From Gambelia wislizenii (lineage: Eukaryota; Chordata; Lepidosauria; Squamata; Crotaphytidae): DNA of 64,000 nt. This document shows, in pieces, positions 5,707-62,195 of this stretch. Numbering within the stretch: the stretch's first letter is position 1; the number at the start of each line of letters is the position of its first letter. The notes beneath the pieces were generated by a model. That model was not told the origin of the DNA. It saw only the letters and a program-made list of their open reading frames with translations, and did no database searches. Location: contig JAUMIR010000003.1 of NCBI GenBank assembly GCA_030847615.1, positions 21,147,001 through 21,211,000 of the forward strand. Reading direction: 5' to 3'. A program made the position numbers and the translations under genes.

Positions 5707-8300
5707 TTTTTTTTGGTGAACTTTATTTATTAAAGGTTTTAAACGCATTAAAAAATACATATATCCTCCAAATTTATCTTCTATGTAATCCATTTTCCTC
5801 CAACCAAGAAACAAAAGAGTATATACATACATACATTCGTCTTCCGAAATTCTTCCAAATCATTTCCACATCTTCTTTCTTGGTTATTTTACAATATTTG
5901 CTCTATTCCTTTATTCTTTCTTCTGTATCTTATCTATCTCTGCTTCCTATTACCACTATCTCTCCATCCGGTATCTCGTTTTTCATAACCATTAAAACAG
6001 ACCTCTATAATATTCAAATTAATTCTATCTACATATTTCTTACATTTAGGTTTTTTCCCCTCTTTTCTATAAGAAATTCCTTATTACCAATTCTACTACA
6101 TGAATTTGTTACCTTACTGTTCCTTATTTGACTGGGATTTTACATTTCTATATTTATCTACTTCCCCTGTCCTTCATCTGAAACTTAATGTTGCTCCTTT
6201 CCCCCATTTTCTTTCCCATATCGGCACTAAGCAATCCCATTCCTCTTTAAAATTGCTTTCCTTTTTATCATTTAATGACATTGTTAACTTATCCAATACA
6301 GCTGTTTCATGTAGCTTAATCAACATTCCTCTACATCCGGAATTTCTGAATTTTTCCAATAATTAGCATATACCAGCCTAGCTGTAGTAGCCATGTATAA
6401 CAATATTCACCAATACTTTTTTCTTATCTGTGTATAGTATATCTAACATATTTAATAAATAAAATTCTGGTCTCATTGGTATATCTACTCTTATTATTTC
6501 CCATACTATTAAGTGAACCTTTTTCCAGAATTTCCTTACTTTGGGGCATTGCCACCAAATATGATAGAACGTACCTCTTTCTAACCCACATTTCCAACAT
6601 CTGTCATTTCTGGTTTTATACATTTTGGCAATCTTGTACGGTGTTAAGTGCCACCTATAAAGCATCTTATAATAATTTTCTCTCAAATCTTGGTTTTTAG
6701 TAAATTTTAAATTTTTATCCCAAGAGCTTTCCCATTGTTCTAATGTTGGTGAAAAGCCCATATTTTGTGCCCATTTAATCATGTTATTCTTCACTGTTTC
6801 CTCTTCCATATCTACTGTTAATAGCAATCTGTATAATTTGGAGATTATTTTTTCCTTCTCATTTCTCAGTATTTGATCCAATTCTGTATGATTCCTTTCA
6901 ATTCCAATCAATTTCATATCCTGTATAAATTTCTCTTTGAGTTGTCTATATAGGAACCAGTGGCATTGTAACTGCTCTTCTTCTAATTCTTCCCTTGTTT
7001 TTATACTCCACTGGTCCCCTTTTACTTTTAAGATCTCTTCGTAAGTCAACCATTTATCCTTACATAAGTTTTCTTTTTTATGAAAAGCCTTGTGTGTCGA
7101 TGTCCATAACGGTATCTTCCTTGAAATTTTATTCCTACATTTCTGCCATACACCTAAAAACGCTCTTCTTATAAAATGATGTTTAAAATCTTTATGCACT
7201 TCTGCCTTGTTATATATTAAATATGCGTGCTACCCAAACCTGTTATTAAATCTTTCTAATGTCAATAGTTTTTTATCATCTAAATTTACCCATTTTTCTA
7301 TCCAAGTCAAACAGCATGTGTAATAATATAATTTCAAATTTGGTAATTGAAATCCTCCTCTTTCTTTCCTTTCATGTAATATTTTCCATCTGATCCGTGT
7401 TTTTTTACCTTGCCATATAAATTTCGATAATTCTTTATTCCAATCTTTAAATGGGATATCATTCGTTATAATCGATATGTTTTGAAACCAAAACATCATT
7501 TTCGGTAATATATTCATCTTTATTAAGGATATCCTTCCTAATAAAGATAATTTTAATTTTTCCCATTGTTGTAATTCTTTTTTTATATTATTCCATCCTT
7601 TAATATAATTATTTTTAAATAGTTCTGTATTTGTCTTTGTTAATATTATTCCTAAGTATCTTACCCTTTTCTCTATGTTAAATTTGGACATTTCCCTTAA
7701 TTCTTTTTCTTCTTTTGTTGACAGATTTTTTGTTATCACTACTGTTTTTTCCGTATTAATTTTGAATCCCGCCAAGTGTCCAAATTCTTCTAAGACTGAT
7801 AATAGTTTCTTTATGCTCTCCATTGGGTTTTCTAAACAGATAACTAAATCATCTGCATAAGCTCTCAACTTATATTTATAGTTCTGAATTTTTAATCCTT
7901 TTATTTCCTCATCAGCTCTTATTTTCCTATTCAAAATTTCCAGAATCATAATAAAAAGTAATGGGGAGAGGGGACATCCTTGCCTTGTTCCTTTCAAAAT
8001 ACTACACGTTGGTGATTTTTCCCCATTTACAATTATTTTTGCCGTTTGATCTTTATATATTGCATTTATCCAACTTATAAAGTTCTCCCCGAATTTCATC
8101 TCTCCCATTACTTCAAACATGAATCCCCAATTTAGGTTGTCAAATGCTTTCTCAGCATCAATGAAAATCAAGCTTAATTTCTTATGATTTTGTTTTTCAA
8201 AATATTCCAGAATATCTATCACAATTCTTATGTTATTTCTTAGATATCTATTTGGCAGAAAACCACTCTGATCTTCATGTATCCAATTCTTTAGTGCTTC
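5707..8300 (-). mobile_element. 5'-truncated L1 retrotransposon with 16-bp TSD
   Basis: The element lies on the minus strand between two perfect copies of TTAATATGTAGATTAA at 5691-5706 and 8301-8316. Its 3' end shows as T8 at 5707-5714, a short poly(A) tail, followed inward by about 660 bp of 3' UTR. The 5' end is cut off inside the reverse-transcriptase domain, as is typical of L1 target-primed reverse transcription. Only the ORF2 RT core and C terminus remain. Confidence 0.93.
6378..8300 (-). pseudogene. L1 ORF2 fragment (reverse transcriptase and C-terminal domain)
   Basis: The reading frame is open from the truncation point at 8300 to 6378, apart from one TAG at 7230-7232. It enters at EDQSGFLPNRYLRNNIR (an RT motif), then shows motif A FIDAEKAFDNLNW, motif B KGTRQGCPLSPLLF, catalytic YADD and the YLGI segment. 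Downstream of the stop is the L1 C-terminal region with CWKCGLERGTFYHIWWQCP, the cysteine/histidine cluster usual near the end of vertebrate L1 ORF2. The endonuclease domain is missing. Because the nonsense codon is the only lesion over about 640 codons, the copy is fairly recent. It cannot move on its own. Confidence 0.92.
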
Positions 8301-18639: not shown

Positions 18640-18740
18640 GGCATTTCCTGTGGATTAATGGCCAGCTGGGAGGAGCTGATGGCCCTGAATGTAGCCAAGG
18701 GCCATTAACCTCAGCCAGTCATTAATCCACAGGAAGTGCC
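18640..18740. promoter_or_regulatory. Quasi-palindromic ATTA-rich block, candidate conserved noncoding element
   Basis: Arms 18640-18660 and 18720-18740 are inverted copies of GGCATTTCCTGTGGATTAATG with one mismatch. Inside them TTAATGGCC (near 18655) answers GGCCATTAA (near 18704). TAATCC and ATTA are homeodomain-type sites, and TTCCTGT is ETS-like. It matches none of the mobile families in the window. A regulatory role is inference from motif content. Confidence 0.4.
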
Positions 18741-21889: not shown

Positions 21890-24092
21890 GAGGCAGTTCT
21901 GCACTACGGGCTCCTGTGAAAGAGATGAGAATTGAGGGGGACCACTCTTGTTAAAGCCCAAGTTAAGAAATCTTCAATCTCTGTGGCTGGTCTAATCAGA
22001 GAGCATTGGATAGTCATTCATATTTAGAAGAAGTGAGTATTCCAGAGATGCCTGACCAGTCTTTTATTGATTGAAGCATGTTGTTTCACCCTTGGGTGCA
22101 AAGCAATTCTACAAGAGAGTTGGTGTTTCCATTATTGACATGTTGTTTTTTTGTATAGGTCTGTGGGTGTTTGGCATTCCTGATTGCTTGCAAGTCCCAT
22201 ACTGTGGCCTTTTCCCCACTCCTTTTCCTCAGCAGCATGACTCACAAAAGCTGTCTTCTCATATTAGGCTGAAGTGGATCAATGTGACAAACTGACAAAC
22301 AAGGTTAAAGTCAGAATTTCAGAATCACTCTTTACAAGTCAGCAACCTGCCTTTAATAAACAAAGAACACTATGTATCATTCTCCTGTACACACATAACT
22401 TAATTGAAGCACCTTACTGTGGCATTTTGTTTCTGAGTGTATCAACTGTCATTCTACCACAAGCTTTAAGAACAGTCTTCATGACAGTGCTCTTTGTGGG
22501 GTAAGGATGGGGATGTTCAAGTAACTAATGGGGTAAAGAGATACAGCAACAATTTTTGAGGACCACCAGATGAGGCATATGTGCCAGGAGGTGGTAGTAT
22601 ATGTTGCTGTAGTTCTCAGAGCTTTTGAAAATATCCAAATGATGTCTTTTTGTCCTGAACCTTTTCCTGTCAAATCCAGGCACCAGCTGCAACATTTTAC
22701 TCCCATCCTTGAGTAGTGTTTTTTCCCCCTCCTAAATTCCAGGATATCATTACCTACCCTGATAGATATTCTATCTTGGAATATCAAATAATTGGCTATA
22801 TTTAATAATTTGGCTTACGGTGGCCATCCACATGGTTGCAGGTAAACCAGGAACCTCCAAATTTCAAGACAGGATTCGTGTAAGATCAAGGGAGGGGCCT
22901 TTGGAAATTCCACTCAGGTTAACAACTGGAGGGGAGTCACTCACTAATCCAATCAATGAAAGTAGAGACCTTAATGCTTGTAAAGTGAATCCTTCTTCTC
23001 CTGCTCCCCTCCAACAAAAAACCTTGCCTGTTCCTATTCAAATCCAAAGTAAAGCACCCACTAATGAGCACTCTTTGTTTAGTCATGGGAACCTCCGAGA
23101 AACATTGCATTCCATTCAAGCTTTCATCTCTTCAGATGAATTGTTCCACATAAATATCATCCTTAAACACCACCCAGGTGTGCACAAATCCCTTGCCTTT
23201 TGACTCCATGTCACTTCGTACCACCATTCTGCCTCCCGGACCTCCTCTCTGCTGGTTTACTTCAAGATCGCAGTTCTGCAAGATTGGTACAGTATAACCT
23301 GCAATCCCCTTACTCTATTCCTCTATGCAAATATTTCCAACTGCTTTCAATAGCCTTGTGTGAGTGTCTGAAGCCTGAGTGTTTGCGTGGATGCTATTGG
23401 TATTAATCTCCAATAACAATTATTTAAGTGTACCTTTTGGCTTAGAATATCCTCCGTTATTACTGGTATACATAGGTTAAAAGGCCCCACCATTGCCTGA
23501 CCTCTCACATGCCAAGCTGGGTTAGCTAAATTCCTCACATTAATATTAGGACATTAGAGGGTCCCCATGGACCCCAAGCAATTGTGGTAACAATATATCA
23601 TAAAGGAAAAAAAATCTACTCATTTCCTTCTTTCTTTCTTTCCCTTTAGAGTTATGGTGCTATAGTGCACTCTAGCATTATGACTAGCATCCTGTATTGC
23701 AGTTATGGATTTGTAACCTAGAGTACCTAGAGAGGCATGATCATAAATACCCTCACCAAACTGACCTTAACAGCCAGCAGCCTGACCAACCAATGGAGGT
23801 CTGTTCTGCTGGCAATAGGAGCACTGCAAGATGGTGTTTCTAGCTCCCCTCCACCAGTGAGTGAGGCTGTGATGATGAATTGCAACAGGGATTCTGCTTC
23901 TGATTGTCACAGCCTTGACTGCTGGAAGGAGTGGACTGAAAATGTCATCGTGCTGTGCCCTGATCGCCAGCTGAACACACTTCCATCAGTCAGTGTGGCT
24001 GCTGGCTGTTAAGGTAGTTTTTTGGGTTAGGCCAGGAGATGATAATTAGTTATACATTTGTATGTGTGTGAACATTTGTATGAATTTGTAAC
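21890..24092. other. No gene recognised; unassigned DNA
   Basis: No coding or repeat family is recognised across these 2.2 kb. All frames are short and featureless. Confidence 0.45.
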
Positions 24093-24095
24093 TAA

Positions 24096-24426
24096 GGAGA
24101 TTTTCAGACAGGCAAAAATCGCTCCTTGCCGCGCGAGCAGCCTCCCGAAACTGCTGCGCGGCAAGGGTCTTCTTCGGACGACGCTGTGCCTCTGGCGAAA
24201 CCGTCCGTGTCACTTCCGTGAAGCTTGGGACGGCTCCGCATCATATTTCAATCACGGGCAGCCTCCGTGCTTGAAATATGACGCGGAGCCGTCCCAAGCT
24301 TCACGGAAGTGACACGGACGGTTTCGCCAGAGGCACAGCGTCGTCCGAAGAAGACCCTTGCCGCGCAGCAGTTTCGGGAGGCTGCTCGCGCGGCAAGGAG
24401 CGATTTTTGCCTGTCTGAAAATCTCC
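24096..24426. mobile_element. 331-bp near-perfect palindromic element, TAA TSD (Harbinger-like MITE)
   Basis: TAA at 24093-24095 and 24427-24429 flank inverted arms of about 163 bp that differ at only two positions, separated by a loop of about 7 nt (GCAGCCT). Termini are GGAGATTTTCAGACAGG. Each arm carries its own nested hairpin (CCTTGCCGCGC against GCGCGGCAAGG), so the single strand could fold into a branched structure. It is rich in CpG, unlike the surrounding DNA. A 3-bp TWA duplication is the PIF/Harbinger signature. There is no open frame, so it must be mobilised in trans. Confidence 0.85.
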
Positions 24427-24429
24427 TAA

Positions 24430-27745: not shown

Positions 27746-28790
27746 ATGCACAGGACTTTGCAACACTCCAGGAGGTTAGCTGGAAGAGAGCTCCAAAATG
27801 GTCTTGAAATAAATGCAAATAATCTGTTTGGACTTCAGAGGTTAACCCCCTGCAGTTTTTGCAACAGCATGCCTAGGACCTGGCATATCTTCAGAAAGTC
27901 ATTTGTATATGTTAATCAGGAACTACTAGGAAGTTCAAGAGCTTTGGCTTGCAACTAATGAGGCAATTGCATTTTTTTAAGTCTTTTTTGGGTTGAAGGG
28001 AGTGGGGAAAGAGAAAGAGTGAAAGGAGGGCTTGGATCTGAAATTATTATCTTCTCTTCAAACATCTGTGCATTGGCAGATTTCAAGTCAGGAGATTTTC
28101 ACTCAGCAAAGAATGATTTAATGACTTCCAAGCTAAGCAAGGCCTTGGGAAAGAAATTGCTCTAAATGGCCCCTCTGCCCACCCCCTCCAGCAATCGCTA
28201 GCTGATCTCTTTTTTGAGGCACTTTTCATAATTCATCTATCTATAGCCTTAAAATAATATTTCATAGCCCCCCCCCTTTCGTTGCCCCAAACCTTAGCAA
28301 TTAACTGAGTGATTATTTTAGTATCTGCAAAGCCATTGCCAATTGATTTTAACTTCTTGGCTGCTTTTAAGGAGTGAGCCTTCGATGTGCTATTCTTACT
28401 GACCCATTAATGTTTGGCAATCGGCTTCCCCATTTTCTTCTTGTTTTAAGTCCTGTTTGTTATGCACAGAATGTATCTTTAATGGCCTCTCTTTGGTACT
28501 CAGGATAGTGTTCTTTGGGGAGATTAGGTTTAATACACTTTAGGGATTTGAATTTTCTGGGAGGAAACATCACATCAATAGTTTTCCCCCCTCCCCACCC
28601 AACAGGGCATGAGTGTAGCTCTATCCTCATTCAGGCTGAAAGTCTCTTCTGTCCTGAACTTCCTCATCTCAGCTGCCTTGTGCCAACAACACAGATCTGT
28701 ATTGCTTTCTACCCTCAGCTTACTATGTGCTGCAGTAAGAGGAATCAACATCCAGAATCCCTAGCAGTGGCTTTCTCCAATCAAGCTCAT
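27746..28790. other. No gene recognised; repeat-free block, possible conserved noncoding sequence
   Basis: Between about 28030 and 28470 there is no recognisable repeat, and short motifs (TTTAATGGCC, GATTTAATGACTTCC, AATTAACTGAGTGATTATTT) look like the ordered AT-hook and homeodomain-type words common in conserved noncoding elements. This rests on appearance only. Confidence 0.35.
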
Positions 28791-28792
28791 AG

Positions 28793-29365
28793 TTTTCTGT
28801 GTTTTTTTTTTCTGGGCTGTGAGGCCGTGTTCTGGAAGAGTTTATTTCTGATGTTTCGCCTGCATCTGTGGCTGGCATCTTCAGAGAATGGTTGGGTAGG
28901 AGTGTGTGTGTGGGAGAATCAGAATGCACAGTGAAGCTATTGAAATCCACAAACACCTGGACAACTTCAACAGGAAAGAAGAAACCCTAAAAGTAAAAAA
29001 AATCTGGCTACCAGTCTTGAAAAACGCTAAAATCAAAACTCAACACATGCAAATTAACTCCAGCCAGGGATAGGGGGATTTCCAGCAGACAATGGACCAT
29101 TAGCCAAACAGACACTTATCCTCCTTGCATATCTCCCCCCCATGAACTAGCCATTCAAATATACAAATTTGCATATCCTCCCCAGCAGGAGTTCACAGTA
29201 TATAAACCCCACACACACTCCTACCAAACCATTCTATGAAGATGCCAGCCACAGATGCAGGCAAAACAGCAGAAATAAACTCTCCCAGAACATGGCCTCA
29301 CAGCCCAGAAAAAAAACATGGAAAACCTATGGATGCCGGCCATGAAAGCCTTCAACTTCACAAGC
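28793..29365 (+). mobile_element. Penelope-like element fragment with inverted LTR-like ends
   Basis: The left part (28793-28889) is an inverted copy of the right-hand terminal segment (about 29235-29335); both contain GATGCCAGCCACAGATGCAGG and AACATGGCCTCACAGCCC. Between them a coding remnant reads EAIEIHKHLDNFNRKEETLK, then a tryptophan-proline segment, resembling the end of the Penelope RT/GIY-YIG protein. The right end finishes in GCCGGCCATGAAAGCCTTC. Oppositely oriented LTR-like pieces are typical of Penelope insertions. The copy is 5'-truncated and not coding. Confidence 0.65.
28846..28888 (-). ncRNA. Hammerhead-ribozyme-like motif in the Penelope end
   Basis: Read 5' to 3' on the minus strand: TTCT (helix I), core CTGAAGA, an extra T, GCCAGC...GCAGGC (helix II with one A-A mismatch and loop CACAGAT), core GAAA, the short ACAT pair forming a minimal helix III, cleavage triplet ATC, then AGAA closing helix I. 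All conserved hammerhead core positions are present apart from the unusual T after the first core block. Penelope-like elements are known to carry hammerhead motifs with very short helix III. Activity is not shown. Confidence 0.6.
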
Positions 29366-30676: not shown

Positions 30677-31480
30677 TGTCAAAACTCTACTTTTCAAAAT
30701 CTGGTAACTATCGCCGTATTCCCTGAATCTATTCCTCTACCCAACCTTTCTGCCTTACTTCTTCGATAGCTTGTCTCAAACATCAAAGTTATACAGGTTT
30801 TGCCATCTCTTATTCCAACATATTCTGATTGGTGTCCATTCTTGTCAACTTGTTTGAATGAGTTGTTCTTTAACATTGCCATTAATCTATCTAAATCCCA
30901 CATATCTCTTAATTTAATTAACCAATCATCTATTGTAGGAATTTCTTTCTCCTTCCATTTTTGTGCAAATAATGTTCTGACTGCTGTGACCATATACAAC
31001 ACTAATTTCCAATGTTTCTCCATAATATTTTCCCCCAAAATATCTATCATATTAAGGACTTTTTCGGATGGGGATTTGTAACGGAAGCAGCCTCGTCCCC
31101 ATTGTGAGGCTGCTTCGCTGCAGAGGGTCCATTTCGGACAACGCTCTCCCCTGCCGATACTGTTGCAGAAGTGCTGGGAGGCTGCAGGGCCATATTTGGT
31201 GATTTTCTAATCACGAAAGTTGATCGCGATTAGGAAATTGCCAAATATGGTGCTGCAACCTCCCAGCACTTCCGCAACAGTATCAGCAGGGGAGAGCGTC
31301 ATCTGAAATGGACCCCCTGCAGCGCAGCAGCCTCACAATGGGGATGAGGCTGCTTCTGTTAAAAATCCCCATCTGAAAAATCCCTAAGCAAATACAGTTC
31401 TGGAAGTTTTGCAAATCTTATTCCTATAATCTCCATTATTTGGTTGTGAATTTTATTCCTTTTTTTCCCATTTCACATCA
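30677..31480 (-). pseudogene. L1 ORF2 C-terminal fragment, split by a palindromic element
   Basis: The minus-strand frame 30694-31050 encodes MIDILGENIMEKHWKLVLYM, then TAVRTLFAQKWKEKEIPTI, a standard L1 ORF2 C-terminal region. Beyond the palindrome at 31056-31384 the frame continues upstream with NQIMEIIGIRFAKLPELYL. The L1 at 5707 has EFYLLNMLDIL at the same place, so the two halves join directly once the insertion is removed. Only the last part of ORF2 remains. Confidence 0.85.
31056..31384. mobile_element. 329-bp palindromic element, TAA TSD (second family member)
   Basis: TAA at 31053-31055 and 31385-31387 flanks inverted arms beginning GGACTTTTTCGGATGGGG on the left and, reverse-complemented, GGGATTTTTCAGATGGGG on the right. 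As in the 24096 copy, each arm has a nested hairpin right behind the end (AAGCAGCCTC against GAGGCTGCTT). It also shares GGGTC...TTCGGAC(G/A)ACGCT. Arms have diverged more than in the 24 kb copy. It sits inside an L1 frame. Confidence 0.85.
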
Positions 31481-33394: not shown

Positions 33395-33765
33395 AATCAT
33401 GGATTGATGAGAATCTTCGCAGTTCAGGGCATTGCCTGTGCAAAATTTGCTGGCTGTTTTGTGCAGAAAACATCATTTTCTATGCAGGAAACAGCATTTT
33501 CTATCTGGAAAATAAGATTTCAACACAGAAATATTAATTCTTGTACAGAAAATGGTGTTATTTGTTGTGCTTAAAATTCACTCATGCTTGATTTGCATAG
33601 GAAACAGCATTTTCTACAAAGAAAACAGCATTTTTTTCATAGGAATTAATATTTTCATTGCAGAAAATGCTGTTTCCTGCACAGCAAATTCACTTTTCTC
33701 AGCAGGAAATGCTGTTTTCTGAGCAAAACAACTGCAAGTGAATTTTGCATAGGAAAACTCTAGCA
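33395..33765. repeat. Internally repetitive dispersed element (CAGCATTTTCT units), copy 1
   Basis: The left half carries direct copies of GGAAACAGCATTTTCTA-like units (near 33465, 33488, 33599, 33622). The right half carries the inverse GCAGAAAATGCTGTTTCCTG (33661) and GAAATGCTGTTTTCTGAGC. The flank GAAGAATC...GCAGTTCA...GTGCAAAATTTGC also precedes the related block at 47455, showing a dispersed family rather than a local satellite. No coding capacity. Confidence 0.6.
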
Positions 33766-41040: not shown

Positions 41041-41760
41041 ATGTGTGTATGTTCCTTCAAGTCACATTTTGGCTTATGGCAACCCCATGAATCACAGAAT
41101 CATAGAATCATAGAATTGTAGAGTTGGAAGAGACCACGATGGCCATCCAGTCCAACCTCCTGCCATGCAGGAAATCATGATCAAAGCATCCCCAGCAGAT
41201 AGCCATCCAGCCTCTGTTTAAAGACCTCCAAGGAAGTAGACCCCACCATGCTACAATGGAGTGTGTTCCACTGCCGAACAGCTCTTACTGTCAAAAAGTT
41301 CCTCCTAATGTTGAGGTAGAATCTCTGTTCCTGGAGCTTGCATCCATTGCTCCGTGTTCCAGTCTCTGGAGCAGCAGAAAACAAGCCTGCTCCATCCTCA
41401 ACGTGACCCCCCTTCAAATACTTAAACAGGGCTATCATATCGCCTCTTAACTGTCTTTTTTCCAGGCTAAACATACCCAGCTCCCTAAGTCTCTCCTCAT
41501 AAGGCAGCGTTTCCAGACCTTTCACCATTTTAGTTGCCCTTCTCTGGACATGCTCCAATTTGCCAGTCCTTTCCTCTGAAATATAGCCAACAACACCTGC
41601 TATTTGTTGGATGTAAGACCACCAACAAATGGTGCTGTAGGCTATATTTCAAAAAAAAGGAACACAAAACCACCTCTGAATATTTCTTGCCTACGAAAAC
41701 CCTATGAAATTCATGGGGTTGCCATAAGCCCAAATGTGACTTAAAGGCACATAGCTGCAG
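41041..41760. repeat. Inverted SINE ends enclosing CR1 and a hairpin
   Basis: TTCAAGTCACATTTTGGCTT with ATGGCAACCCCATGAAT at 41056-41093 is answered, inverted, by ATTCATGGGGTTGCCATAAG with CCCAAATGTGACTTAAAG at 41710-41748. Between them lie a CR1 end (41091-41563) and a hairpin whose arms TGAAATATAGCC (41577-41588) and GGCTATATTTCA (41640-41651) extend to about 30 bp with mismatches. The arms belong to the 3' half of the SINE family seen at 11705. Confidence 0.65.
41091..41563 (-). mobile_element. CR1 LINE 3' end, minus strand
   Basis: It begins in reverse octamers (ATCATAGAATCATAGAATTG). The minus frame to 41558 encodes [40 protein letters not shown] and [20 protein letters not shown] without a stop. 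It is a young but strongly 5'-truncated CR1 copy, closely similar to the C terminus of the element at 49.5-53.6 kb. Confidence 0.93.
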
Positions 41761-50590: not shown

Positions 50591-53516
50591 CAAATGGGGG
50601 AGGGAGACAGTATTCTGGAAGGCAAAAGGGCTGGAGAAAATAGTCAAACTGTCATAGAGGGAACAAGGCAAACAGCGCAAGGACCCAACAGTGGGAGGCA
50701 AAAAAACTTGAACAGGAAGCAAGTAAAGGGAACACATGGTCTCAGATGTCTCTACATTAATGCACAGAGCATGGGAAATAAGCAAGATGAACTTGAACTC
50801 CTAGCACTACAAAACAAATATGATATAATAGGCATTACTGAAACCTGGTGGGACGAGTCTCATGATTGGAATGTAGGAATAGAGGGGTATAATCTTTATA
50901 GGAGAAACAGGCCAAACAGGAAAGGAGGAGGAATAGCATTATATGTCAGGGATATTTACACCAGTGAAGTGATCCACAACATCAATACTGGAAGCCAGGT
51001 GGAGAGCGTCTGGATAAAAATTAAAGGGGAGGGAAACAACAGGGATGTTATTGTGGGACTCTAATACAGACCCCCAAATCAGACGGAGGAATTGGATGTT
51101 GCCTTTCTAGAACAGATGAACACACATGCAGAAAGGAGAGATGTAGTAGTGATGGGGGACTTCAACTATCCTTATATTTGCTGGAAATCTAACTGAACCA
51201 AAACTTCAAGGTCTAGCAAATTCCTTACATGCCTGGAAGACAATTTCATGGTCCAAAAGGTGGAAGAGGCAACAAGGGGGTCAGCTATTTTAGATCTGAT
51301 CCTAACCAACAGAGATGACCTGGTTAATGGGGTGCAAGTGGTGGGATCCTTAGGTGGGAGTGATCATGTTCTCCTGGAGTTTGTTATACAATGGAAAGGA
51401 GAAGCCAGGCATAGTCAGACACACATTCATGACTTTAGGAGAGCTGATTTCAATAAACTCAGGGAAATACTGGGGGTGATCCCATGGTCAGGAATACTAA
51501 AAGAGAAGAGACCTCAAGACGGATGGGACTTTCTCAAAAAGGAGCTACTGAAGGCACAATTTCAAACAGTACCATTGAGGAAGAAAAATGGGAGGTGTCT
51601 CAAGAAACCAGGATGGATGACTAAAGAACTTTCAATGGAGCTAAGTTTTAAACGGAACATGTATAGGAAATGGAAAGGGGGGGAAATCACCAAAGAAGAA
51701 TTCAAACAGATAGTGAACACGTGTAGGAGTAAAGTCAGAAAAGCTAAAGCACAGAATGAGCTCAGGCTTGCTAGGGAGGTTAAGAACAATAAAAAGGGTT
51801 TTTTTGTGTATGTACGCAGCAAAAGGAGGAAGAAGGAAATGATAGGGCCGCTACGTGGAGAAGATGGCAAAATGCTAACAGGGGACAGAGAAAAGGCAGA
51901 ATTACTCAACACCTTCTTTGCCTCAGTGTTTTCAGAAAAGGAAAGGGAGGACCAACCTGAGGATAATGGAACAGAGGACACAATAGGGGAAATCCAGCTC
52001 AAAATAAGTAAAGAGGTAGTACAGGAATACCTTCTTAATCTAAATGAATTTAAATCTCCAGGACCAGATGAACTGCATTCAAGAGTATTAAAAGAGCTGG
52101 CAAATATAATCTCAGAGCCATTGGCAATAACATTTGAGAACTCCTGGAGAACAGGAGAAGTCCCAGCAGACTGGAGGAGGGCAAACGTAGTTCCCATCTT
52201 CAAAAAGGGGAAAAAAGAGGATCCCAACAATTATCGTCCAGTTAGTCTGACATCAATACCAGGGAAGATTCTAGAGCAGATCATTAAACAGAGAGTCTGT
52301 GAACATTTAGAAGGCAATGCCATAATCACAAAAAGTCAACATGGGTTTCAGAGAAACAAGTCATGCCAGACTAATCTGATCTCTTTTTTTGATAAAGTTA
52401 CCAGCTTGGTAGATGAAGGGAATGCTGTGGACATCGCATACCTTGATTTCAGTAAGACCTTTGACAAGGTTCCCCATGACATTCTTGCAAACAAGCTTGT
52501 AAAATGGGGGCTAGACAAGTTAACTGTTCAATGGATTTGTAATTGGTTGACCGGCCGAACCCAAAGGGTGCTCAGCAGTGGCTCCTTTTCGTCTTGGAAA
52601 GATGTGACTAGTGGGGTGCCACAGGGTTCTGTCCTGGGCCCAGTACTATTCAACATCTTTATCAATGACTTGGATGAGGGAATTAGGGGCATACTTATTA
52701 AATTTGCAGATGACACCAAATTGGGAGGAGTAACTAATACCCTAGAGGACAGAATCAAAATTCAGAATGACCTGGATAGACTGGAGAGCTGGGCCAAAGC
52801 TAACAAAATGAAATTCAATACGGAGAAATGTAAAGTACTGCATTTAGGGCAGAAAAATGAAATGCATAAATATAGGATGGGAGAGACCTGGCTGAATGAG
52901 ACTACGTGCGAAAGGGATCTAGGAGTCCTAGTAGACCACAAGATGAACATGAGCCAACAGTGTGATGCGGCAGCTAAAAAGGCCAATGCGATTTTGGGCT
53001 GTATCAATAGAAGTATAGTGCCACTCTTGATATAGATCAAGGGAAGTAATAGTGCCACTCTATTCTGCCTTGGTCAGACCTCACTTAGAATACTGTGTCC
53101 AGTTCTGGGCACCACAATTCAGAAATGATATTGACAAATTGGAGCGTGTCCAGAGAAGGGCAACTAAAATGGTGAAAGGTCTGGAAACGATGCCTTATGA
53201 GGAGAGACTTAGGGAGCTGGGTATGTTTAGCCTGGAAAAAAGACGGTTAAGAGGCGATATGATAGCCCTGTTTAAGTATTTGAAGGGATGTCATGCTGAG
53301 GATGGAGCAAGCTTGTTTTCTGCTGCTCCAGAGACTGGAACACGGAGCAATGGGTGCAAGCTCCAGGAACAGAGATTCCACCTCTACATGAGGAGGAACT
53401 TTTTGACAGTAAGAGCTGTTCGGCAGTGGAACACACTCCCTCGGGGCATGGTGGGGTCTCCTTCCTTGGAGGTCTTTAAACAGAGGCCGGATGGCCATCT
53501 GTCGGGGATGCTTTGA
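50591..53516 (+). pseudogene. CR1 ORF2 (endonuclease and reverse transcriptase), broken
   Basis: One frame runs from just after ORF1 to 53035, with stops at 51062-51064 and 51194-51196. The endonuclease shows LYINAQSMGNK, TETWWD and the catalytic GDFNYP between the two stops, then GSDH (SDH motif). The RT has KSPGPDELHSRVLK, NYRPVSLTSIPGK, AYLDFSKTFDKVPHD (motif A), SGVPQGSVLGPVLF and catalytic FADDTK. At about 53015-53050 the frame shifts by +1 within a small duplication. The C terminus resumes at 53052 with [16 protein letters not shown] and ends [19 protein letters not shown]. All domains are recognisable but three lesions prevent a full product. Confidence 0.92.
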
Positions 53517-59764: not shown

Positions 59765-59976
59765 AGTTGAAGGCTTTCACAGCCAGCATCCATAGCTTTT
59801 CCTTGGGTTTTTTCGGGCTGTGAGGCCATGTTCTGGAAGAGTTTATTTGTGACATTTCACCTGCATCTGTGGTGAAACATCTCTGAAGATGCCAGCCACA
59901 GATGCAGGCAAAATGTCAGAAATAAACTCTTCCAGAATATGGCCTCACAGCCCCCCCCCAAAAAAACATGGAAAAC
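59765..59976. mobile_element. Two Penelope LTR-like ends in inverted orientation
   Basis: On the left (about 59765-59872, minus sense) runs AAGGCTTTCACAGCCAGCATC ... TTCGGGCTGTGAGGCCATG. On the right (59881-59976, plus sense) runs GAAGATGCCAGCCACAGATG ... ATATGGCCTCACAGCCC. The two meet at about 59873-59881 with no coding DNA between them. The right copy keeps the CTGAAGA core (59882-59888) but has CAAAA in place of the GAAA core, so its hammerhead is broken. Confidence 0.7.
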
Positions 59977-61223: not shown

Positions 61224-61881
61224 CCTCTCTCTCGCTTTTCTTCACAAACAAAGATTCAGGAAGGACTCATCCTGCTCTTTCTGCAAGAGCACTGATGACT
61301 AAAAAGGCCAATCCGAGATAAACAAGTCCAGTTGCAGAAAGCACAGCAGAAGGTCTCCTTGGGTGATGTTTCTGGGTTGAGATTCTTTCTGCGTGGTTGT
61401 TTCTCTTCAAGACTTGTTTGGCATGAGTTCTCAAATAAGGCTGCACCATTGTGGATAGTGCGTCTCCATGCCTTCCGATGTGAGGCCATGGTGGACCATT
61501 GTTGGTGATCAATTTGGCCAAGCCTGAGATGTTGTTTCAGGGCATCCTTGTATCACTTTTTTGGAGCGCCTCTCTTACGCAGACCTGTGGCAAGTTCACC
61601 GTAGAGTCCTGTTTTGGGGAGGTGATGGTCCTCCATCCTAGAAACATGCCCTGCCAGCACAGCTGTGTTCTCAATATCATGGCCTCAATGCTGGTGATCC
61701 CTGATTGCTCAAGGACAGCAACATTCATCACATAGTCAGTCCAGTGTATATTTAGGATTGTGCGTAAACAGCGCTGATGAAAGCATTTGAGGAGTCATAA
61801 GTTTTGGCGATAGGTGACCCATGTTTCAGACCCATAAAGGAAAATAGAAGTACAACGGCTCTATACACACTGATTTTTGTG
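61224..61881 (-). mobile_element. 5'-truncated second copy of the APE/RT retrotransposon
   Basis: The minus strand reproduces the last part of the 13-17 kb element, from the position corresponding to about 16509 to the 3' terminus. It includes LRTQLCWQGMF, the KRGAPKK-equivalent region and the finger FCCAFCNWTCLSRIGLFSHQ. The 3' end carries the same short UTR. Coding continuity is lost (frames at 61256-61489 and 61537-61731 differ). It is clearly older than the intact copy. Confidence 0.9.
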
Positions 61882-62195
61882 CGATGGTGGGGGGGGTGGA
61901 CAGGGGATGGAGAAGAGGAGGAGAGCTCACCTTCCTTCTCCCTTCCCCATGGGGGCTTCCAGCACTGTGGTGGAGGTGGCAGGGGGATGGACAGGGAAGG
62001 GAAAGGAGGAGGAGAGCTTGCCTCCCTTCCCCACGAGGGGTTCTGGCAGCGCGGCAGAGGTGGCGGGGATGAATGGGGGAGGAGGAGAGTTCATTTTCCT
62101 TCTCCTTCCCCTGCAGGGGGTTCTGGTGGTATGGTGGGGGGTGGACAGGGGAAGAGGAGGAGCAGAGCTCACCTCCCACCTGGTTCCCTCCCCTT
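61882..62195. repeat. Minisatellite, about 3-4 units of roughly 85-100 bp
   Basis: Purine-rich units recur: GGACAGGGGATGGAGAAGAG, GGACAGGGAAGGGAAAGGAG, GGATGAATGGGGGAGGAG and GGACAGGGGAAGAGGAGG. Each is followed by GAGAGCTCACCTTCCTTCT-like and CTTCCCCATGGGGG-like pyrimidine-rich segments. The many overlapping frames here are products of low complexity. It directly abuts the truncated end of the retrotransposon copy. Confidence 0.75.

What the first reader, a model, noticed from the sequence alone, without database searches (positions are those of the whole stretch)
24093..24429. 331-bp, almost perfect CpG-rich palindrome flanked by TAA
The two arms of about 163 bp differ at only two sites and are separated by about 7 nt. 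Each contains a nested hairpin. Such a palindrome is hard to replicate and normally shrinks, so near-identity implies a very recent insertion or repair of one arm by the other. Transcribed, it would give long double-stranded RNA.
Basis: seen in the sequence. Interest (0 to 1): 0.75.

Follow-up and report, generated by a model that had tools for sequence, protein, structure and literature searches.

The report
Young palindromic mini-transposon in lizard-like genome
A 331-base stretch of reptile-type DNA reads almost the same on both strands because it is most likely a small, non-coding jumping element, and an older relative nearly 7 kb away suggests that the two halves of such elements change together during evolution instead of drifting apart.

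Summary
The palindrome is real: a 331-bp element (P1, 24096-24426) with 162-bp arms, 2 mismatches, a 7-nt spacer and TAA on both sides. It is not alone. At 31056-31384 lies a second, older palindrome (P2) with the same plan: 161-bp arms (20 mismatches), a 7-nt spacer, flanking TAA and a hairpin starting at arm position 29. The two are distant homologues (about 54-58% arm identity). Removing P2 with one TAA leaves a continuous reading frame with a short L1-like match across the junction, as expected of an insertion. Best explanation: a non-autonomous palindromic DNA transposon (MITE) with PHIS-type (PIF/Harbinger or NuwaII-like) duplications, in a squamate-like genome. P1 looks young: its CpGs are nearly undecayed. 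P1's arms match each other, as do P2's, while P1 and P2 have diverged deeply, so arms are re-matched (or palindromes re-created) in the active lineage. In P2, 7 of 10 arm CpG sites are in mixed state, so matching does not persist after insertion. The host genome could not be searched (ten calls unanswered): copy number, transposase and mechanism of matching are untested. New member of a known kind; the arm co-evolution is the interesting part and rests on two copies.

The parts
24096..24426 (.). P1: 331-bp palindromic element (MITE), 35 CpG
24093..24095 (.). left target-site duplication TAA (readable as CTAAG with neighbours)
24427..24429 (.). right target-site duplication TAA
24096..24257 (+). 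P1 left arm, 162 bp
24258..24264 (.). P1 spacer GCAGCCT, 7 nt
24265..24426 (-). P1 right arm, 162 bp, 160 of 162 complementary to the left arm
24124..24166 (+). P1 nested hairpin, left arm, starting at arm position 29
24356..24398 (-). P1 nested hairpin, right arm (mirror of the left one, not folded on its own)
   Evidence: by symmetry
31056..31384 (.). P2: 329-bp older palindromic relative of P1, arms 161 bp (141 of 161 identical), 7-nt spacer 31217-31223
31053..31055 (.). P2 left target-site duplication TAA
31385..31387 (.). P2 right target-site duplication TAA
31084..31116 (+). P2 nested hairpin, left arm, starting at arm position 29
31324..31356 (-). P2 nested hairpin, right arm (mirror; folded within the whole right arm as RNA)
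30694..31052 (-). open frame interrupted by P2, L1-like by a short match at the junction only; continues beyond 31387
   Evidence: no Pfam match (run on 30694-31206) and no protein hit

Best explanation
P1 is a young copy of a non-autonomous, fully palindromic DNA transposon (MITE) moved by a transposase supplied elsewhere, most likely of the PHIS superfamily (PIF/Harbinger, or the related NuwaII group), which inserts at TAA and leaves a TAA duplication. P2 is an older, distant member of the same family. Shown: palindrome, TAA flanks, shared architecture, P1-P2 homology, and a continuous frame once P2 and one TAA are taken out. Inferred: the transposase, and that while the family is active the two arms are kept alike by copying one from the other when the strand folds back in replication (template switching) or by mismatch repair inside the hairpin; after insertion the arms drift apart.
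For: P1-P2 homology: nhmmer E 3.7e-12 (P1 query) and 1.9e-9 (P2 query); left-arm alignment score 26.5 against a maximum of 13 in 1000 shuffles. Same plan: arms 162/161 bp, spacer 7/7 nt, hairpin from arm position 29, TAA flanks. Excising P2 with one TAA gives an open frame; a protein frame of the window's other L1-like element (6378-7229, minus strand) matches across the junction without a gap, 15 of 29 residues, about 22 on one side and 6 on the other. Arms match within an element (160/162; 141/161) but not between elements (81-88 of 151); of 151 ungapped columns 54 split P1 from P2 and 0 split left from right arms. P1 keeps 17 of 18 arm CpG sites in both arms; P2 has 3 of 10 intact in both and 7 mixed. 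PHIS traits in PMC4482050 (passages and sections 5 and 8 read): TWA duplication for PIF/Harbinger with first TIR base usually A or G; C|TNA|G target and GG ends for most NuwaII TIRs. Both elements start GG, and P1's site is C|TAA|G.
Against: Only two copies, from one window. No transposase or autonomous partner was seen. P2's site is T|TAA|G, fitting TWA but not full CTNAG; the duplication may be 3-4 bp (P2) or 3-5 bp (P1), since the element's first base equals the flanking G. blastn (word 7, E<=1) did not link P1 to P2. The split count 54 to 0 is partly a restatement of arm identity. The L1-like label is my recall: the junction match is short (E 6e-06 against 700 bases only), the interrupted frame has no Pfam match, and its left-flank part (118 residues) had no hit among proteins of 0.55-1.75 times its length, a search that could not see full-length L1 proteins. 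In a longer stretch (31056-31190) P2's fold is not exceptional (z -1.65, 12 of 200 shuffles as good), though the hairpin stays in it.
Confidence: 0.7

Rival explanations
1. Independent rebirth: P1 and P2 each arose by a fresh inverted duplication of the same end of two long-diverged autonomous elements, so the arms match because each palindrome was made recently, not because arms are homogenised.
For: Gives the same within-element identity; a birth by snap-back at a short hairpin could fix the spacer length.
Against: Both palindromes turn at the same place: equal 7-nt spacers, and inner arm ends similar (12 of 17 inner bases, permutation p about 0.0006, length chosen after looking; p 0.0013-0.010 at the four other lengths tried; inner-part alignment reached by 0 of 2000 shuffles). 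A second birth would have to reuse the same turning point.
Confidence: 0.2
2. Arms stay matched by selection on the folded form (transposase or Myb-protein binding, or an RNA hairpin), through separate compensatory changes.
For: A nested hairpin is kept at the same arm position although much of its sequence differs.
Against: Whole 162-bp arms match, not only hairpin or terminal stretches; in P1 only 2 of 162 pairs are broken, more than selection on pairs would seem to need.
Confidence: 0.12
3. The palindrome is an assembly or fold-back sequencing artefact.
For: Long palindromes are a known artefact class (recalled); no reads were available.
Against: The symmetry stops at TAA duplications, the spacer is not symmetric, two arm differences exist, and a related older palindrome sits 6.6 kb away.
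Confidence: 0.03

Closest known systems
PIF/Harbinger MITEs (Tourist-type, recalled; short non-autonomous Harbinger-Snek variants in sea kraits, PMC8437027, two passages seen)
   Same: TAA (TWA) duplication, no known coding capacity, first TIR base G, a few hundred bp, reptile-type host
   Different: Inverted repeat runs the whole length with a 7-nt spacer; in PMC4482050 about 93% of PIF/Harbinger TIRs are under 60 bp. No sequence comparison with a named family was possible.
NuwaII group of the PHIS superfamily (PMC4482050, section 8 read)
   Same: P1's site is C|TAA|G and the ends are GG; the group is reported from, among others, one turtle
   Different: P2's site is T|TAA|G; reported NuwaII TIRs are 13-46 bp; no transposase seen here
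Inverted-repeat arm homogenisation by template switching (PMC8604942 outline and abstract; PMC8794818 passages)
   Same: One arm is rewritten from the other, keeping stems perfect
   Different: Described there for short repeats in yeast coding DNA and for RNA genes; here inferred for 162-bp arms of a mobile element over deep divergence

Membership tests
PIF/Harbinger (PHIS) | 5'-TWA-3' target-site duplication | tested here: met
   TAA flanks P1 and P2; taking out P2 with one TAA leaves a continuous frame; a length of 4-5 bp is not excluded
PIF/Harbinger (PHIS) | terminal inverted repeats, first base usually A or G | tested here: met
   ends GGAG...CTCC in P1, GGAC...TCCC in P2; low specificity
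PIF/Harbinger (PHIS) | mobilised by a DDE transposase plus Myb/SANT protein of a related autonomous element | not testable with these tools
   host genome search unanswered
NuwaII (PHIS) | C|TNA|G target | tested here: inconclusive
   P1 C|TAA|G yes; P2 T|TAA|G no
MITE | short element with terminal inverted repeats and target-site duplication | tested here: met
   331 and 329 bp; near-complete inverted repeats; TAA flanks
MITE | no coding capacity | not tested
   ORFs were listed only from 150 aa up, longer than the element could hold; no search for shorter frames
MITE | many copies in the genome | not testable with these tools
   2 copies in 64 kb; genome search unanswered

The most novel reading that the evidence does not exclude
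The family is copied through a folded-back single strand (hairpin) or is obligatorily corrected in that form at each move, so every new copy starts as a perfect palindrome made from one arm; elements then diverge at nearly half of their positions while always staying palindromic, a transposon whose two halves share one evolutionary history.
Probability: 0.15. Interest if true: 0.75.

Novelty: new member of a known kind. Interest (0 to 1): 0.42.

Why it matters
Long near-perfect palindromes are expected to be unstable (established knowledge), yet here two related ones, of different age and little more than half alike, keep the same arm length, centre and nested hairpin. If more copies confirm it, such a family would be a natural record of how often inverted-repeat arms are rewritten from each other in a vertebrate germ line, and whether this happens at transposition or in ordinary replication. 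P1 is also a candidate source of hairpin RNA.

Tried and rejected
Search of the host genome for further copies: ten identical requests, none answered. Rfam: 0 matches at gathering thresholds in the window. Two P1 words in viral contigs: 0 and 0 exact matches, with the tool's warning that records of the window's own genome may be left out. A profile of P1 and P2 found no third member in the window (next hit E 5.8). Other palindromes of the window (P3-P6) were considered as relatives: none is among the profile's hits up to E 100, and P2 alone touches P6 only at E 6.5; P3 has TTAA at both ends (read), so they are left out. A protein search with the left flank of P2 (118 residues) to confirm the L1-like label gave 2 candidates and none at E<=0.001. 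Literature: the listed titles and abstract starts of searches showed no paper on arm co-evolution in palindromic MITEs; the lists were capped (for example 15 of 2,373 papers, 20 of 92), and only listings were seen except for PMC2872659 and PMC8604942 (outline and abstract), PMC8794818, PMC8437027 and PMC10760457 (passages), and PMC4482050 (passages, sections 5 and 8). The library lacks most subscription papers, and no repeat library was on hand, so this does not show novelty. Rejected: ongoing arm repair at settled loci (P2's mixed CpG sites).

Full report
Observation. The palindrome is as described. The element proper is 24096-24426 (331 bp), arms 162 bp, spacer 7 nt, 160 of 162 arm positions complementary, TAA on both sides. 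It has 35 CpG, observed/expected 1.2, in a window at 0.17. Eight palindromic self-matches at seven places occur in the real window against one in total over 20 shuffled windows, P1 being the strongest. The left arm folds into a nested hairpin (24124-24166; z -5.7), and the right arm mirrors it. Folded as RNA the 337 nt with TAA flanks form one long hairpin of -357 kcal/mol.

Host. The window carries several reverse-transcriptase elements. The CR1-like one (label recalled) at 51197-53035 is 75% identical to a Podarcis muralis and 73% to an Anolis carolinensis protein, second and third of the 120 listed; the first (77%) has no name, and birds and turtles follow at lower identity (only the 7980 candidates sharing most words were scored). 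This points to a squamate, by inference; the species is not known.

A second member. A scan for inverted repeats gave another palindrome at 31055-31385 with the same spacer length. P2 is 31056-31384, 329 bp, arms 161 bp, 141 of 161 identical, spacer 7 nt, TAA on both sides. nhmmer links the two (E 3.7e-12 and 1.9e-9), and the left-arm alignment scores 26.5 against a maximum of 13 in 1000 shuffles; blastn at word 7 and E<=1 did not. Shared features are GG ends, a T-rich stretch, a hairpin beginning at arm position 29 and carrying AGCAGCCTC, a GGGTC..TTCGGAC.ACGCT block, and AATCACG near the inner end of the left arms. P2's hairpin on its own has z -3.6 (0 of 200 shuffles as good); a longer P2 stretch is not exceptional (12 of 200).

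P2 looks like an insertion. Joining P2's flanks with a single TAA gives a frame that reads on through the junction; a protein frame of the window's other L1-like element (6378-7229, minus strand, beside a frame with a Pfam reverse transcriptase domain) matches across it without a gap, 15 of 29 residues, about 22 residues on one side and 6 on the other. The evidence is short: the interrupted frame has no Pfam match, and a protein search with its left-flank part found nothing (length limits exclude full-length L1 proteins). It still supports a TAA duplication, since the frame is kept. Because the element's first base equals the next flanking G, 4 bp (P2) or up to 5 bp (P1, CTAAG) cannot be excluded.

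Arms against copies. Within P1 the arms differ at 2 of 162 sites, within P2 at 20 of 161 (16 transitions, 4 transversions; 12 in CpG, TpG or CpA context), but P1 and P2 arms share only 81-88 of 151 aligned sites. In the four-arm alignment (151 ungapped, 21 gapped columns) 76 columns are constant, 54 separate P1 from P2, none separates left from right arms, 19 are differences inside P2 and 2 inside P1. So the arms of each element share a history younger than the P1-P2 split. Either the arms are re-matched in the active lineage or each palindrome was born anew. The common centre (7-nt spacers; 12 of 17 inner bases alike, p about 0.0006 with the length chosen after looking, 0.0013-0.010 at four other lengths; inner-part alignment reached by 0 of 2000 shuffles) favours an already palindromic ancestor and thus re-matching.

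When does matching occur? In P2 only 3 of 10 arm CpG sites are intact in both arms and 7 are mixed (6 CA, 1 TG), and 13 of 141 non-CpG sites differ; in P1 17 of 18 CpG sites are intact in both and 1 of 126 non-CpG sites differs. P2 therefore decays like ordinary DNA and is not being kept fully matched now. P1's identity is explained by youth: at a neutral rate of about 0.8e-9 per site per year (recalled), 2 of 162 (95% interval 0.15-4.4%) would be some 8 million years, with a range from about 1 to 27.

Mechanism. A PHIS-type transposase acting in trans fits the TAA duplication and GG ends (PMC4482050). Template switching is reported to homogenise arms of short inverted repeats (PMC8604942 abstract) and to create or fix hairpin stems (PMC8794818 passages). 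Extending this to 162-bp arms of an active MITE is my inference. Nested hairpins may be protein-binding sites; untested.

Verdict. Most likely a palindromic MITE, new member of a known kind. Interest lies in the arm co-evolution, which two copies suggest but cannot prove.

Noticed in passing
In a reptile-type genome this could fit horizontal transfer. Its 3' part recurs at 61224-61882 (92%).
   Followed up: partly
window 23758-24020: Another, older palindrome (about 71% arm identity, CpG-poor) only 75 bp from P1, with TTAA at both ends, suggesting a different palindromic element family.
   Followed up: partly
window 59815-59953 and 28788-29331: A 139-bp palindrome whose arms match the roughly 126-bp inverted arms of a 544-bp stretch, so perhaps one family in fully palindromic and longer forms.
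   Followed up: no
window 33573-33746, 41567-41661, 18640-18740: Further weaker palindromic self-matches (70-75% identity), so this region is rich in old palindromes compared with shuffled sequence.
   Followed up: no
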